Origin: Leptotrichia sp. oral taxon 847
Lineage (GTDB): Bacteria > Fusobacteriota > Fusobacteriia > Fusobacteriales > Leptotrichiaceae
Length of the DNA: 64,000 nt
Assembly: GCF_001553645.1 (NCBI RefSeq)
Contig: NZ_CP014231.1
Location: forward strand, 496,001 to 560,000
Direction of reading: 5' to 3'
In this document: one piece after another, positions 2,728 to 11,906 of the stretch
Position numbering within the stretch: position 1 is the stretch's first letter
How the letters are laid out: the number at the start of each line of letters is the position of its first letter
Notes under the pieces: generated by a model
What the model saw: the letters and a program-made list of their open reading frames with translations, nothing else
Database searches by the model: none
What the model was told of the DNA's origin: nothing
Program-made: the position numbers and the translations under genes

Positions 2728-3786
2728 TTATATTCTTTTAACAATTTCATTTCCCATTTCATCAGTTCCAACTTTTTTCAGTCCATCAGTATAAATATCA
2801 GCTGTTCTGAATCCATCTTCCAATACTTCTGCAATTGCTTTTTCAATTGCATCTGCTTCTTTTGTCAAGTTAAATGCGTATCTTAACATCATTGCCGCTG
2901 ATAAAATTGTTGCGATTGGGTTTGCGATGTTTTGTCCTGCGATGTCTGGTGCAGAACCGTGGCTTGGCTCATAAAGTCCAACTTTTCCATCTCCTAAACT
3001 TGCTGATGGCAACATTCCAAGTGATCCTGTAAGCATTGAAGCCTCATCTGATAAAATATCTCCAAACATATTGTCTGTCAAAATTACATCAAATTGTCTT
3101 GGATTTGCAATCAATTGCATTGCAGCGTTATCCACATACATGTGGGAAACTTCCACTTCTGGATAATTTTTTGCAAGTTCATTTACTGTTTTTCTCCACA
3201 ATTTTGAAGTATCTAAAACATTGTGTTTATCCACACTTGTAATTTTTTTCCCTCTTAATTTTGCAATTTCAAATGCTTTTTTTGCTATTCTTTCAATTTC
3301 CCCTTTTGTATATGGCAATGTGTCGACAGCTTTTTCATCAGAATATTCTCTAGGTCCGAAATAAATTCCTCCTGTAAGCTCTCTAACTATCATTACATCT
3401 AGCCCTTCTCCAATTATTTCATCTTTTAGAGGACTCGCACTTTTCAATTGCTTAAACAAAACCGCTGGTCTTAAATTTGTGTAAACTCCCAAGTCTTTTC
3501 TTATCGCAAGAAGTCCTTTTTCAGGTCTTTTATCAGGCTCAACATTATCCCATTTAGGCCCTCCAACTGACCCCAACAAAATCGAGTCACTCTCTTTACA
3601 AATTTTCGCAGTTTCTTTGGAATAAGGAATCCCATATTTATCAATAGATTCTCCTCCCAAATACCCTTGCGTATACTCAAATTTATGTCCAAATTTTTCT
3701 CCAATTTTATCCAAAACTTTTACCGCTTCATCAACGATTTCTGGACCAATTCCGTCCCCTTTTAATAATGCAATTTTGTAGTTCAT
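2728..3786 (-). CDS. leuB: 3-isopropylmalate dehydrogenase
   Basis: LeuB oxidises and decarboxylates 3-isopropylmalate to 2-oxoisocaproate with NAD+, the third committed step of leucine synthesis. The 352-residue length is normal for the family. Visible signatures include the N-terminal [19 protein letters not shown], the substrate loop ending in [13 protein letters not shown], and the metal-binding [16 protein letters not shown] segment, followed by the NAD-site [14 protein letters not shown]. It is the last leu gene of the cluster read right to left (leuA, leuC, leuD, leuB) but is separated from leuD by a restriction locus and several unknown genes. The ATG is preceded by AAGGAAG (reverse strand). 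No defect seen. Confidence 0.97.
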
Positions 3787-3830
3787 TTTTTTACTTCCTT
3801 TCTTTTAAAATATTTCAACAAATATTTATT

Positions 3831-5141
3831 TTATAATTTTTTTATACAATCTATCTTATTTAAAAAAATTTTTTCACTTTTTTTTATTTCAACAACAAAT
3901 TCTTTATAATTAGATATTTCTTGTGGAATTTTAAAAGAAATTTTAAATATTTCTCCACCACATCCATTTAATTGTCCTATTTCATTAGATTCGGATTTGT
4001 CTATATCCGGATAGATTACTCCTGATTTTTTACCTTCTATTATATGCAAATAACTTATTAATTGATATAAATCTTCTCTGTAAATTTCTTTTTTGTTTTT
4101 TCCTAATTTCTTGTATTTTGCATCTAATATAATTTTTTCATCAAGGTTATAAAAATCAGGATAGACCATTCTTTGCCTATTGCTAAACAAAGAAATACCT
4201 TTTTCCGATTTTTTATTTTTAGGGTGAATGAATTTTTTATTTATCAACATAGTGTTTAAATACTCTTCCCAAAGCCAGGCAACATCTATTATTATTCCAT
4301 GAATTTTATTATCGTTATTTCCAAAATCTATTTTTTCATTTTTTAAAATTTGAATGCATAATTTTTGTAAATCATAATATTCTTCATAATAGCTATGTCT
4401 AACTGGATTAAGTATATTATCTTTTAATATTTTGACCAAATCAGAATTTTTATAACTTTTTGTATTTTGTACAAGTATTTGTATATCTTCTTTTAAAAAC
4501 ATATCATTGAAAAAATCAAAGTTATAATTTTGTTTTATTTTTTCTAAAGTATGTCTAATTATCTGAGTTACTCTATTATCAAAACTAAACTCTCTTGTTG
4601 TATAAGATATTTTCCCATTAAATGGAATATTTTTATTTATATTTTTTATAATATTTATAGCTCCTCTAACATTCAAATTATTGTATTCTTTAGTTTTATA
4701 TTCTTTATATAGACCTTTTTTCATAGCTCTCTTTAAATAAAACGGAAATAAATAAATTAATAAATCATAGTACATTCCTAAATTATCACTTTTTGTTTCA
4801 TTTTTTATAACATTATAATTAAGTACTTTTTGAAACATATATTTAAGAAAATAATCAGATTGTGACTCAGAATTATTAAAAAATCTTGTTTTAATTTTAA
4901 CTTCATCATGTCCTTTTCCAATTACCCCGACTATATTTCGAGTATATACTTTTTTATTTTTTGATTCAAATATAAAATTACTCTTTTCTAAATCTTCTGA
5001 TTCTTTTAATATTGGTGGAAAAATTATAAAATTATCTTCATTTAATTGAGATAAAGTAATATTTAATAATTCTTCTATTATTTCGTTCTTTCTAAATTCA
5101 GTTATGTCTGCATTATCAGTTAGTATCATTTTTTCCATCAT
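3831..5141 (-). CDS. mcrC: McrC-like subunit of a type IV (McrBC) restriction system
   Basis: McrC is the nuclease partner of the McrB GTPase in systems that cut modified DNA. This 436-residue protein has the family pattern: a beta-rich N-terminal half with VNVRGAINI-like sequence (here LNVRGAINI, about 156-164) and a C-terminal PD-(D/E)xK nuclease core with P328-D329 and D340-A-K342. Its start lies inside the end of the ATPase gene (26-base overlap), the usual mcrBC translational coupling. Three in-frame ATGs (5141, 5138, 5129) are possible; the last is best spaced from a GGA. The protein looks intact although its partner gene is frameshifted upstream. Methylation specificity cannot be read from sequence. 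Confidence 0.88.
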   Translation of the reverse strand: MMEKMILTDNADITEFRKNEIIEELLNITLSQLNEDNFIIFPPILKESEDLEKSNFIFESKNKKVYTRNIVGVIGKGHDEVKIKTRFFNNSESQSDYFLKYMFQKVLNYNVIKNETKSDNLGMYYDLLIYLFPFYLKRAMKKGLYKEYKTKEYNNLNVRGAINIIKNINKNIPFNGKISYTTREFSFDNRVTQIIRHTLEKIKQNYNFDFFNDMFLKEDIQILVQNTKSYKNSDLVKILKDNILNPVRHSYYEEYYDLQKLCIQILKNEKIDFGNNDNKIHGIIIDVAWLWEEYLNTMLINKKFIHPKNKKSEKGISLFSNRQRMVYPDFYNLDEKIILDAKYKKLGKNKKEIYREDLYQLISYLHIIEGKKSGVIYPDIDKSESNEIGQLNGCGGEIFKISFKIPQEISNYKEFVVEIKKSEKIFLNKIDCIKKL

Positions 5142-6306
5142 AATATTTTTTAATCTCTCTCAATTTTCCTTCTGAATCTCTTTCTCCTCTAAAATAATCT
5201 TTTAATAAAGGTTCTAATTTATTTTTCCAAAGCTCGTCTTGATTAACTTTACCTTCATCCAATGCTTTAAAATAACTTCCACCTATTTGATAATCTTTTG
5301 ATAAATTACCAATTTTTTGATCTATAATCGCATTATTTAATCTTGTCATCTGTTCTTTTATTTTGCCATTTTTAAGCATTATCTGAGAGTCTTCTGCCAT
5401 AATCTCTTCAAATAAGAATCTACGTCGCATAGCAAAATCAAAAGTATCTACTGAACGGTCTATATCATTCATTGTTCCTATAATATAAACATTTTCTGGT
5501 ATATAAAATTTTTCTTGTGAATCTTCATGCATATTAGAATATTGTGTTTTTATAGAACCTTTTTTACCTCGATATTCTGGATCAATTGAGAAAAACAGCT
5601 CTCCAAAAATTTTAGAAATTTCTCCTCTGTTAATTTCATCAATAAGAAAAATATAATTTTTATTAACAGAATTATGTTCTTTTTTAATTTCATCATCATA
5701 TTTTTTTAAATAATTAACAGGTGTTGAATACCAATTACTAAAATTATTTTCTTTATCAAATTTGCTAATTTCTTCGCTATTCTCAAGAATTTCTCTTAAA
5801 TTTCCATAAGTTTTTATTTCAGATGTTTTATCTCCTGTATATTTTTTTTTCCCAAGCAATTGCTCAATTTGAGGAATATAATTTTTAGCTCTATTTCCCC
5901 CTAATTCTTTTAAAAAAATTTCAAAACCTTGTAATGTAAATTCTTTAGAATTTAATTTTCTTAAAACTTCTGATATTTTTGCTATTTCACAAAATTCATA
6001 AAATATACCTTTTTTTAATTCAAAACCTAATTGATTATTTTTAATAATTGGTCTCAATCCTTCAATAAAATCAGTATAATCATAACTGGAATGAAATTGA
6101 ACAAACTCAAACTGTTCATTATTATCTAATTCATCAACATTAATTCCTATCATTTCAGCTGCAATTTGTCTAGCTAAATATGTTTTTCCTGTTCCTGGAG
6201 CTCCTCTCAAAATTATATTATAATTTTTTTTTAGTTTCTCTTTTAAGTCAAATATTCTACTATCTTTTAATTTATTTTTAGAATAATTTTCAGATTCTTC
6301 TATCAT
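5116..6306 (-). CDS. mcrB: McrB-like AAA+ GTPase, ATPase part (frameshifted from its N-terminal domain)
   Basis: The motor subunit of a McrBC system. Walker A GAPGTGKT is at 35-42, Walker B LIDEINRGE at 221-229, the McrB hallmark TMNDIDRS at 278-285 and an arginine-finger segment FAMRRRF at 291-297. The ATG at 6306 has no ribosome binding site, and the same frame stays open upstream (reading EPNQNVKELFDYFYK) to about 6350, directly overlapping the end of the preceding 160-residue ORF. Joining the two needs one extra A in a run of five, giving a McrB of about 565 residues with the normal N-terminal recognition domain. Either the gene is broken, or -1 slippage makes the full product. Overlaps mcrC by 26 bases. 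Confidence 0.85.
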   Translation of the reverse strand: MIEESENYSKNKLKDSRIFDLKEKLKKNYNIILRGAPGTGKTYLARQIAAEMIGINVDELDNNEQFEFVQFHSSYDYTDFIEGLRPIIKNNQLGFELKKGIFYEFCEIAKISEVLRKLNSKEFTLQGFEIFLKELGGNRAKNYIPQIEQLLGKKKYTGDKTSEIKTYGNLREILENSEEISKFDKENNFSNWYSTPVNYLKKYDDEIKKEHNSVNKNYIFLIDEINRGEISKIFGELFFSIDPEYRGKKGSIKTQYSNMHEDSQEKFYIPENVYIIGTMNDIDRSVDTFDFAMRRRFLFEEIMAEDSQIMLKNGKIKEQMTRLNNAIIDQKIGNLSKDYQIGGSYFKALDEGKVNQDELWKNKLEPLLKDYFRGERDSEGKLREIKKYYDGKNDTN

Positions 6307-6332
6307 TTTATAAAAATAATCAAATAACTCTT

Positions 6333-6815
6333 TTACATTTTGATTTGGTTCTTTTTGTTAAGTCCTAATTTACTAATTGATTCTTCAAAGCCTTTAGTAT
6401 ATCCTTTTTCTTGCATATACCTTTTAAATTCTTCAGATTCTTTATTGTCTTCATGATACCCTTTATAATAAGCTACAACTTTTTTATTATCATACTGATA
6501 AACAATATTTATCCAACAACCTATATTTTCAATTTTAGATTGATATACAATAAAATTAGTATTTTCTCCTTTATAATGTCCAGATGTTACAAAATTAATA
6601 TTTATTGAAAAATCACTATATTTTATAAATTTTTCATCAAATTTTGGATTTAAAAATTCTTTTTCTGATCTTTCCAAGCTTTCCATATCCTTGCTTTTTA
6701 TATTTTTAATCTTTACTCTCTCACCACTATTTGCAATATTTTTATCAGTTTGAGAAATCCAAAATTTTAACATTTCAAAAAAATTTAAATAGTCTTCATC
6801 ATTAGCTCTATACAT
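6333..6815 (-). pseudogene. mcrB: N-terminal (probable target-recognition) part of McrB, separated by a frameshift
   Basis: This 160-residue reading frame starts MYRANDEDYLNFFEMLKFW and ends a few codons after the A5 run at 6352-6356. McrB proteins carry a variable N-terminal DNA-recognition domain before the AAA+ motor; the position, orientation and the way the downstream frame continues without a start signal argue that this is that domain. I do not recognise a specific fold, but the central ININFV...FIVYQSK beta pattern would fit a DUF3578-like module only loosely. Alternatives: a separate small gene of the restriction island, or a true two-cistron arrangement. The frame-joining argument makes the split-gene reading the more likely one. 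Confidence 0.65.
6351..6357 (-). other. Frameshift / possible slippery site C-AAA-AAG in mcrB
   Basis: On the coding strand the zero frame reads AAC-AAA-AAG-AAC. A -1 slip on AAA-AAG, or one extra A, continues in GAA-CCA-AAT into the ATPase frame. The heptamer resembles the A-AAA-AAG slippery sequence known from bacterial dnaX, but no stimulating stem-loop is obvious downstream. Confidence 0.6.
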
Positions 6816-6846
6816 TTTTCTTGCTCCTAAAAATTATTCATTTTTT

Positions 6847-7314
6847 TTAATTTAACAAATTCTTTCTATCCACTTTTTCCTTCAATCTATCAAAATAACC
6901 ACCTTCAATCAGATTGTTCCTATTCTGCATCCACCATGCCTTTCCATTAATTTGGGCAAAATTTATTATTTCTTTTTTTATTTTATCCCCAACTCTTACT
7001 GATATTGTAAATTTATAGTTTACGATTCCTTTTTTTAAATCAATTTTTTCTATATCATCAACATCTATTCTTGTTAAAAGCCCTTTAATTCCACCAAGCA
7101 TCCCAACTTCGAAAAATAATATTTCATTCTCCTTAAAAAGTATATAACACGGCTTCATTCCTGCTTTCATAATCAATCCAATAAGTCCCATCATCAAAAA
7201 TGAATTCAAATTTCTTTCTCTTTTAATACCGTAAATAAAATTTTTATCATACTCTATCCCATTTTCCTTAAAATATTCTTCTACTTTCAACTGTTCTTTT
7301 GATTTTTCTGCCAT
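6847..7314 (-). CDS. Hypothetical protein with a bacterial PH-like domain
   Basis: A 155-residue protein with an N-terminal amphipathic stretch (EQLKVEEYFKENGIEY), a short hydrophobic segment (SFLMMGLIGLIMKAGMKP, about 37-54) and then alternating beta strands (CYILFKENEILFFEVG ... IDVDDIEKIDLKKG ... YKFTISVRVGDKIKKEIINF). The strand-rich half resembles the bacterial PH-like (bPH) domains that occur in membrane-associated or secretion-related proteins of unknown role. It sits between the restriction locus and two paralogous unknown genes, all read the same way with gaps of 30-40 bases, so it is likely cotranscribed with them. No function is proposed. Confidence 0.5.
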   Translation of the reverse strand: MAEKSKEQLKVEEYFKENGIEYDKNFIYGIKRERNLNSFLMMGLIGLIMKAGMKPCYILFKENEILFFEVGMLGGIKGLLTRIDVDDIEKIDLKKGIVNYKFTISVRVGDKIKKEIINFAQINGKAWWMQNRNNLIEGGYFDRLKEKVDRKNLLN

Positions 7315-7351
7315 CTTTTAAATTTTTCTTTCTAATTTTTATTCTATTATT

Positions 7352-8152
7352 TCAATAAACAACTTCTTCCTCAGCAACATCATTAACATAATTAACCTTT
7401 TTAGTCAATTTCCCATCCTCATCATAGAATTTCCAAATTCCCTCTTTTTTCCCAGCTTTATAATTTCCAGTTATTGCTAAATTATGATTACTATAATAAA
7501 ATTTTGCCAATCCTTCTCTTGGCTCTCCCCACTTGCTTAACCACATTGAATGTATTTTTGTCTTCTCTCTAAATATCGTAGAAAATTTATCGTTTAATTC
7601 CAAATCAACAACAAACTCAAAAAGAGCATTAAAACTTGCAGCCAAAAATCCCTTATCAATGTTCCCTTTTAACCAAATCCAATTATCCCCCACAACTATA
7701 TAATCATCAACTACTTCAAAATAAAAATTTCCTTCACTTGTTATTTCAATACTTTCAACAAAAATATATTTTTTAAACTTGTCTATTGGAAATATATTAT
7801 TTTTATATGCCTTTTCAGCTTCTTCTTTTGTAAAATCGTCTTTTAAAATTTCAAATAACATATCATAGCAAGTTGGATACTCTGGAAATGCTCCATCATC
7901 AAAAAAATCATCATTCAGCACATCATAAAAATACTTAACCATCGTATCTTTCACTTTTTTATTCCATTCATCCTGATTAAGATACAATTCTTCCAAAATT
8001 TTAAACATTTTTTCTTTTTCAAGTTCAACATTATCACATTCTTTATAAATCGTAAGTCTTACTAATGTTTCTTTACCTTTCCAAATAATTTTTCCGTCCC
8101 ACTCTTTAAAATTTCCCATATATGTATTTTCAACAAAATCCTGAATTTCCAT
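7352..8152 (-). CDS. Unknown protein, DUF2262-like domain with C-terminal MORN-like tail
   Basis: A 266-residue acidic cytoplasmic protein. Residues about 20-180 align by eye with most of the next gene upstream (shared W-x2-K-x-K, a PEYPTCYDM/PKYAEIYYE segment, EEAEKAYKNNIF..D.FKK versus EKIMKNNFLTKEAFKK, and EITSEGNF). The pattern resembles DUF2262 proteins. The last 40 residues read ITGNYKAGKKEGIWKFYDEDG, a single MORN/YwqK-like repeat as found in some immunity or antitoxin-type proteins. The pair probably arose by duplication. No catalytic motif is visible; an immunity-type role is only a guess from the tail. Confidence 0.5.
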   Translation of the reverse strand: MEIQDFVENTYMGNFKEWDGKIIWKGKETLVRLTIYKECDNVELEKEKMFKILEELYLNQDEWNKKVKDTMVKYFYDVLNDDFFDDGAFPEYPTCYDMLFEILKDDFTKEEAEKAYKNNIFPIDKFKKYIFVESIEITSEGNFYFEVVDDYIVVGDNWIWLKGNIDKGFLAASFNALFEFVVDLELNDKFSTIFREKTKIHSMWLSKWGEPREGLAKFYYSNHNLAITGNYKAGKKEGIWKFYDEDGKLTKKVNYVNDVAEEEVVY

Positions 8153-8186
8153 ATCTGATTTTCCTTTCTGAAAAAATCTAAGAAAA

Positions 8187-8723
8187 TTAATCCATATAAA
8201 ACTCGTCTATTTCACCATTAAAATTACACTCAGCATAAAACATTTTATCAACAAAAAACAATCTTTCGTACATAGTAATAGAAAAACTATTTTCATCATC
8301 GTCAGTTAAATCAATTGTTATTTCCATATCTTCATTATCAAGTAACTTTTTAAATGCTTCTTTTGTAAGAAAATTATTTTTCATAATTTTTTCTGTATCT
8401 TCTTTTCCAATAATTTTAAGTAATTTTTTCTCCACTTCATCAATACTCTTTGTCTCATAGTAAATTTCGGCATATTTAGGCTTTACCCATTTTTCCTCAT
8501 TAAACCAGTCAACAAATTCATCAGCAAACAAATTTTTACACTTTGTATCCCAGTATTCTTTCTTTTCTAAAATTTTTTCAACCATTTCTTCGACTTTTAT
8601 TTCATCAATTTTCTTTTCATCAATGTCATCTTCACCATTACAGTACAATTTCATTTCTATTTCATGATTTATCCACATCACTTTACGAGTATGCTCTCCA
8701 TCTATGATTTCCCAATTTTTCAT
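8187..8723 (-). CDS. Unknown protein, paralogue of the adjacent DUF2262-like gene
   Basis: A 178-residue acidic protein that parallels the N-terminal two thirds of its downstream neighbour but lacks the MORN-like tail. Shared features include the EMKLYCNGEDD / VRLTIYKECDN strand, a W-x2-K-x-K motif, and the KNNFLTKEAFKKLL helix. It starts with a good AAGGAG ribosome binding site only about 18 bases downstream from the leuD stop-side gap. I do not recognise a specific function; tandem, diverged copies are common in immunity-type and contact-dependent loci, but no toxin gene is present here. Confidence 0.5.
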   Translation of the reverse strand: MKNWEIIDGEHTRKVMWINHEIEMKLYCNGEDDIDEKKIDEIKVEEMVEKILEKKEYWDTKCKNLFADEFVDWFNEEKWVKPKYAEIYYETKSIDEVEKKLLKIIGKEDTEKIMKNNFLTKEAFKKLLDNEDMEITIDLTDDDENSFSITMYERLFFVDKMFYAECNFNGEIDEFYMD

Positions 8724-11633: not shown

Positions 11634-11906
11634 TTATTCTAAATTTATATTTTTAATCACATAAATATCCAATTTTTGGTCATTCGCAAGTTCAGTCAAC
11701 ATATAGTCAATTGCCTTTTTGTGATTCAAAACTTCAAAAACTTCACGAATACTCTTACCCCCAGGTAGCGTACTATCTAAAATAATCGTAGCAGTTTCAT
11801 TTAGTGTCAATGTATTTCCTTCAATCGCATTTGAGTGATATGTTATTCTTACTGATAAATCTAAAAAATATTCATAATTTATATTTTTTATATCCATTTT
11901 CTCCAA
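11634..11906 (-). pseudogene. Fic-family protein, N-terminal remnant
   Basis: The 90-residue frame contains TYHSNAIEGNTLTLNET, the characteristic (S/T)xxxE(G/N)N autoinhibitory-helix region of class II/III Fic AMP-transferases, followed by the usual REVFEVLNHKKAIDYM. The catalytic HPFxDGNGR motif and the entire Fic core are missing; the frame stops just after IKNINLE. The start here is TTG; upstream DNA to about 11,970 reads an out-of-frame MRAQKIESLDYDNMED peptide that may be the lost true N-terminus. It is best read as a broken gene kept only in part. Confidence 0.65.

What the first reader, a model, noticed from the sequence alone, without database searches (positions are those of the whole stretch)
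5116..6815. McrB split into two frames at an A5 run: frameshift, phase variation or programmed slippage
The ATPase frame lacks a ribosome binding site, but reads back in frame to the A-run where the N-terminal ORF ends. One more A, or a -1 slip on C-AAA-AAG, gives a normal-length McrB with a target-recognition domain. If slippage is real, this restriction system would produce two McrB forms, as E. coli does by internal initiation (McrBL/McrBS).
Basis: partly seen in the sequence, partly recalled or inferred. Interest (0 to 1): 0.6.

Follow-up and report, generated by a model that had tools for sequence, protein, structure and literature searches.

The report
Restriction gene broken by one-base loss
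A DNA-restriction gene (mcrB) in this bacterium is cut into two frames because one base is missing; a sister species carries the same gene whole, so this is an ordinary broken allele (or a sequencing slip), not a programmed frameshift switch.

Summary
The split is real in the sequence: a 160-residue N-terminal ORF (6815-6333, minus strand) and a 396-residue AAA+ ATPase ORF (6306-5116), followed by mcrC (5141-3831). A congeneric genome (G002) holds the same locus, 99.9% identical over about 3.6 kb, with mcrB as one 566-codon frame. The only indel in mcrB is one base at the junction, and it is not a change in A-run length: G002 has GAAAAAG where the window has CAAAAAG. Both have A5, so an A6-to-A5 slip is not what happened. 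Residues read between the junction and the ATPase's first ATG (EPNQNVKELFDYF) are conserved in a fused Enterococcus McrB, so that stretch was coding in the ATPase frame. There is no stimulatory RNA structure, the A-run is no better than chance, and no second genome has the split. Of 83 genes compared in 400 kb of this genome, mcrB is the only one frame-split, so the assembly is not error-ridden, but a sequencing error remains possible. Best reading: a recently shared accessory McrBC (type IV restriction) locus, inactivated here by a one-base indel. Low interest; mildly open points are the orphan N-terminal domain and whether slippage rescues any protein.

The parts
6333..6815 (-). N-terminal part of mcrB, now a separate 160-codon ORF with its own ribosome-binding site; orphan domain
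   Evidence: 99% identical to residues 1-156 of the intact 566-aa McrB of G002; no family hit above cut-off
6352..6357 (-). site of the one-base indel: AAC|AAAAAG here, AACGAAAAAG in the intact sister copy
   Evidence: pairwise alignment; the 21-base G002 form is absent from the whole window genome even with 1 mismatch and present once in G002
6307..6351 (-). former coding stretch between the indel and the ATPase's first ATG (EPNQNVKELFDYFYK in the ATPase frame)
   Evidence: same residues in G002; EPNALLKEFLDQF in the fused Enterococcus gallinarum McrB
5116..6306 (-). AAA+ motor part of McrB (Walker A GAPGTGKT; GTMNDIDRS)
   Evidence: PF07728 E=3e-14; NCBIfam McrB PRK11331 E=3e-44, below its equivalog cut-off; E. 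coli McrB structures 6hz4/6ut6 match the G002 protein at E=5e-43 to 2e-42
3831..5141 (-). mcrC, nuclease partner; its start overlaps the end of mcrB by 26 bases
   Evidence: PF10117 E=1e-56; the only McrC-family match in the genome

Best explanation
This is a conventional McrBC type IV restriction locus whose mcrB was a single gene of about 566 codons. In this genome one base next to (not in) an A5 run is missing, so translation from the normal start ends after 160 residues, 7 codons past the lesion (shown). The ATPase part keeps an open frame but has no ribosome-binding site, so little or no motor protein should be made, and McrC, whose start overlaps the end of mcrB, probably loses coupled translation too (both inferred). 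The locus is therefore most likely non-functional in this strain. I put about two thirds on a real recent indel mutation in a recently shared accessory locus, and one third on a base lost in sequencing or assembly; neither is programmed.
For: Whole locus in congeneric G002 with one uninterrupted mcrB frame of 566 codons; mcrB differs from it by one indel and one substitution in 1.7 kb, the mcrB-mcrC block by five differences in about 3.6 kb. The A5 run has equal length in both. Residues between the lesion and ATG 6306 are conserved in a fused 759-aa E. gallinarum McrB, aligned in one piece across the junction; E. faecium homologues are single 590-aa genes. The five best Fusobacteriota homologues after G002 lie in frames of 703-1015 codons. 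mcrB is the only frame-split gene among 83 G002-matched genes in 400 kb. A frameshifted mcrB pseudogene beside mcrC is already reported in C. jejuni CAMSA2002 (PMC8713573).
Against: Only one other genome holds this exact locus, so polarity (loss here rather than gain there) rests on G002 plus more distant Enterococcus proteins. No reads, no second strain of this species and no expression data: mutation and sequencing error cannot be separated here. Both remaining frames are otherwise undamaged, which fits a very recent event or an error equally.
Confidence: 0.88

Rival explanations
1. Sequencing or assembly error (the minor half of the best explanation, stated alone): the living strain has an intact mcrB and an active McrBC system.
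For: A single base in an otherwise undamaged gene, next to a homopolymer; 99.9% identity to an intact copy. Antonov et al. expect unclustered frameshifts validated by BLASTp to be sequencing errors rather than genuine indels, in a 2013 genome set (PMC3711429).
Against: Single-contig genome, 100% complete; none of 82 other compared genes is split; in the sister copy the missing base is not part of a homopolymer.
Confidence: 0.3
2. Programmed or spontaneous -1 ribosomal slippage on C-AAA-AAG makes some full-length McrB beside a free N-terminal domain.
For: In-frame C-AAA-AAG is present, a -1 slip restores the frame, and AGGA lies 9 bases upstream of the AAG codon.
Against: The intact relative needs no slip; downstream RNA folds no better than shuffles, z = 0.04; no other genome shows the split; ARAGORN calls a tRNA-Lys with anticodon CTT in this genome, which, from general knowledge, should make AAG less slippery than in E. 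coli.
Confidence: 0.05
3. Phase variation: slipped-strand change of the A-run switches McrB on and off.
For: An A-run lies at the frame break.
Against: Run length is identical in the broken and intact copies; A5 or longer occurs about every 79 bases of ORF in this window, and longer A9 tracts inside the ATPase ORF show no length difference.
Confidence: 0.04
4. Two separate genes: a small N-terminal protein and an independent ATPase.
For: Both frames are open and long.
Against: The ATPase ORF has no ribosome-binding site; conserved coding residues lie upstream of its first ATG; homologues are fused.
Confidence: 0.02

Closest known systems
McrBC type IV restriction system (E. coli K-12 McrB/McrC)
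   Same: AAA+ McrB motor matching solved E. coli McrB sequences and a PF10117 McrC encoded directly downstream with overlapping ends
   Different: mcrB is split by an indel; the N-terminal domain matches no catalogued family; E. coli makes its short McrB by internal translation (PMC12602166), whereas the ATPase ORF here has no ribosome-binding site
mcrB pseudogene of Campylobacter jejuni CAMSA2002
   Same: frameshifted mcrB next to mcrC while another strain keeps a complete mcrB (PMC8713573)
   Different: that pseudogene has frameshift mutations (plural) and a diverged N-terminus; here there is one indel and 99.9% identity to an intact copy
E. coli dnaX programmed -1 frameshift
   Same: a lysine slippery heptamer (A-AAA-AAG there, C-AAA-AAG here) with a purine-rich stretch upstream
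   Different: no downstream stimulatory structure, no conservation, and the relative makes the full-length product without a slip

Membership tests
McrBC type IV restriction system | AAA+ McrB-type motor | tested here: met
   PF07728; McrB model E=3e-44, below equivalog cut-off; E. coli McrB chains
McrBC type IV restriction system | adjacent McrC nuclease | tested here: met
   PF10117 192.7 bits against cut-off 23.9
McrBC type IV restriction system | N-terminal recognition domain fused to the motor | tested here: not met
   separate frame in this genome; fused in G002; the domain itself is unrecognised. So: a broken member of the family, not a working one
McrBC type IV restriction system | restriction of modified DNA | not testable with these tools
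   needs an assay
Programmed -1 frameshifting | slippery heptamer in frame at the transition | tested here: met
   C-AAA-AAG; three such in-frame sites in 17,233 codons of the window
Programmed -1 frameshifting | stimulatory downstream structure | tested here: not met
   z = 0.04
Programmed -1 frameshifting | split conserved among homologues | tested here: not met
   intact single frames in G002 and Enterococcus
Slipped-strand phase variation | tract whose length differs between on and off copies | tested here: not met
   A5 in both copies
Slipped-strand phase variation | mixed tract lengths within one culture | not testable with these tools
   no reads held

The most novel reading that the evidence does not exclude
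The broken allele still yields a little full-length McrB by ribosomal or transcriptional slippage on the C-AAAAA-G stretch, with a large excess of free N-terminal domain, so that the system runs at a low, self-buffered level.
Probability: 0.05. Interest if true: 0.4.

Novelty: new member of a known kind. Interest (0 to 1): 0.12.

Why it matters
It matters little as a mechanism: frameshifted restriction genes are well known. It is a useful caution that an A-run at a frame break in an AT-rich genome is not evidence of phase variation, because comparison with an intact copy shows the run unchanged. If the indel is real, this strain has probably lost type IV restriction, while a sister species has kept it on a nearly identical, recently shared segment.

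Tried and rejected
Exact-pattern scans for the junction in genome contigs and viral contigs gave nothing, nor did the protein scans; near relatives may be left out of those collections. N-terminal domain against plasmids and phages: no match. The fold of the N-terminal domain from a single sequence was poor (pLDDT 54) and its PDB matches are not significant (best E 0.59). The Pfam hit to a T7 capsid assembly family is below cut-off and dismissed. A first frameshift-rate test at nucleotide level compared few genes and gave alignment artefacts at gene starts and in a low-identity repeated stretch, so it was redone with proteins. Papers on McrBC with phase variation gave no report of a slippage-controlled mcrB that I recognised in the listed titles and abstracts.

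Full report
Observation. The minus strand carries a 160-codon ORF (6815-6333), then a 396-codon AAA+ ATPase ORF (6306-5116), then mcrC (5141-3831). The first ORF has a good ribosome-binding site (AGGAGC); the ATPase ORF has none, and its frame reads back in the open to the A5 run at 6352-6356 as EPNQNVKELFDYFYK. What is not special is the run: this 29% GC window holds 658 runs of A5 or more in 51.9 kb of ORF sequence, and the ATPase ORF itself holds two A9 tracts.

Identity. The ATPase matches AAA_5 (PF07728) and NCBI's McrB model, and the full protein of the relative matches solved E. coli McrB chains at E=5e-43 (6hz4) to 2e-42. The downstream gene is McrC (PF10117, 192.7 bits) and the only one in the genome. 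The 160 residues match no family above cut-off in Pfam, PADLOC or NCBIfam, nothing in plasmid or phage records, and no other genome among 98 of the phylum except G002. That they recognise DNA is inferred from their place in the protein.

The decisive comparison. G002, a different species of the same genus (median protein identity of compared genes about 85%), has the same locus at the same place beside leuB. Between window positions about 3,690 and 7,265 the two differ at five sites only, against about 95% identity in the flanks, so the segment was shared recently. In G002 mcrB is one frame of 566 codons. The one indel in mcrB lies exactly at the junction: G002 reads AAC-GAAAAAG-AAC, the window AAC-AAAAAG-AAC. 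The A-run is five long in both. The G002 form is absent from the window's genome and present once in G002.

More distant relatives agree. The E. gallinarum plasmid McrB (759 aa, MrcB_N domain, next to an annotated McrC) aligns in one piece across the junction, with NEKEPNQNVKELFDYF facing SKEEPNALLKEFLDQF. E. faecium homologues are single 590-aa genes. The five best Fusobacteriota homologues after G002 lie in frames of 703-1015 codons, one of them (G018) with stop codons inside the match; three weaker matches sit in frames of 290-416 codons and were not examined. Thus the stretch upstream of the ATPase's first ATG was coding in the ATPase frame, and fusion is the likely ancestral state.

Programmed or accidental. 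Programmed frameshifts are expected to be conserved among homologues and to carry stimulators. Here the relative needs no slip, the downstream RNA folds like its shuffles (z = 0.04), and no second genome shows the split. An AGGA 9 bases before the AAG codon is a weak point in favour; a called tRNA-Lys(CTT) in the same genome is a weak point against. In a survey of 1,106 genomes, unclustered frameshifts are ascribed mainly to sequencing errors, recent indels or false positives (PMC3711429).

Mutation or error. In 400 kb of this genome, 82 genes match G002 proteins in one frame and mcrB alone is split; the assembly is one contig at 100% completeness. This favours a real mutation, but one base in an otherwise undamaged gene also fits an error, and no reads are held. 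A frameshifted mcrB next to mcrC is on record in C. jejuni CAMSA2002, while another strain with complete McrBC restricts phages (PMC8713573).

Consequence (inferred). The strain would make a free N-terminal domain, little or no motor, and less McrC because mcrC starts inside the end of mcrB. Restriction is then lost. The E. coli short form McrBS, made by internal translation (PMC12602166), is not a good parallel: the ATPase ORF lacks a ribosome-binding site and no full-length partner is expected.

Distribution. Of 13 genomes of the genus, only the window's and G002 carry this mcrBC beside leuB, so the locus is accessory. The genus name is not given by the tools; the phylum is Fusobacteriota to judge by the relatives, and the genus is probably Leptotrichia (inference, not tested).

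Noticed in passing
window 3690-7265: mcrC, mcrB and most of a small PH-like gene are 99.9% identical to another species of the genus while the flanks are about 95% and compared proteins about 85%: recent sharing of a short segment, apparently by recombination.
   Followed up: partly
window 3831-3844: An A-run near the end of mcrC is one base shorter than in G002, which only changes the last residues (IKKL instead of IKKIIK).
   Followed up: partly
window 6333-6815: The McrB N-terminal domain is an orphan: no family, plasmid, phage or PDB match, found only in two species; possibly a new reader of modified DNA.
   Followed up: partly
L035 about 2329-2405 (G000:C1 about 442329-442405): ARAGORN calls a tRNA-Lys with anticodon CTT, whereas the fetched part of G002 shows only TTT; relevant to how slippery AAG codons are; the call was not checked.
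   Followed up: no
window 6847-8723: Between mcrB and leuD lie small genes with PH-like, DUF2262 and MORN-repeat features; the genes next to leuB differ between species of the genus, so this looks like a variable site.
   Followed up: partly
L006, L018 (G018 contig 39): A related McrB-type gene in another genus of the family shows stop codons inside the match, possibly another damaged mcrB.
   Followed up: no
L073 5226-6518: The gene in the mcrC position on E. faecium plasmids is annotated as guanosine 5'-monophosphate oxidoreductase in some records and as McrC family protein in others; the former looks like a misannotation.
   Followed up: no
window 11634-11906: A 90-codon ORF starting at TTG looks like a truncated Fic-type protein fragment.
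   Followed up: no
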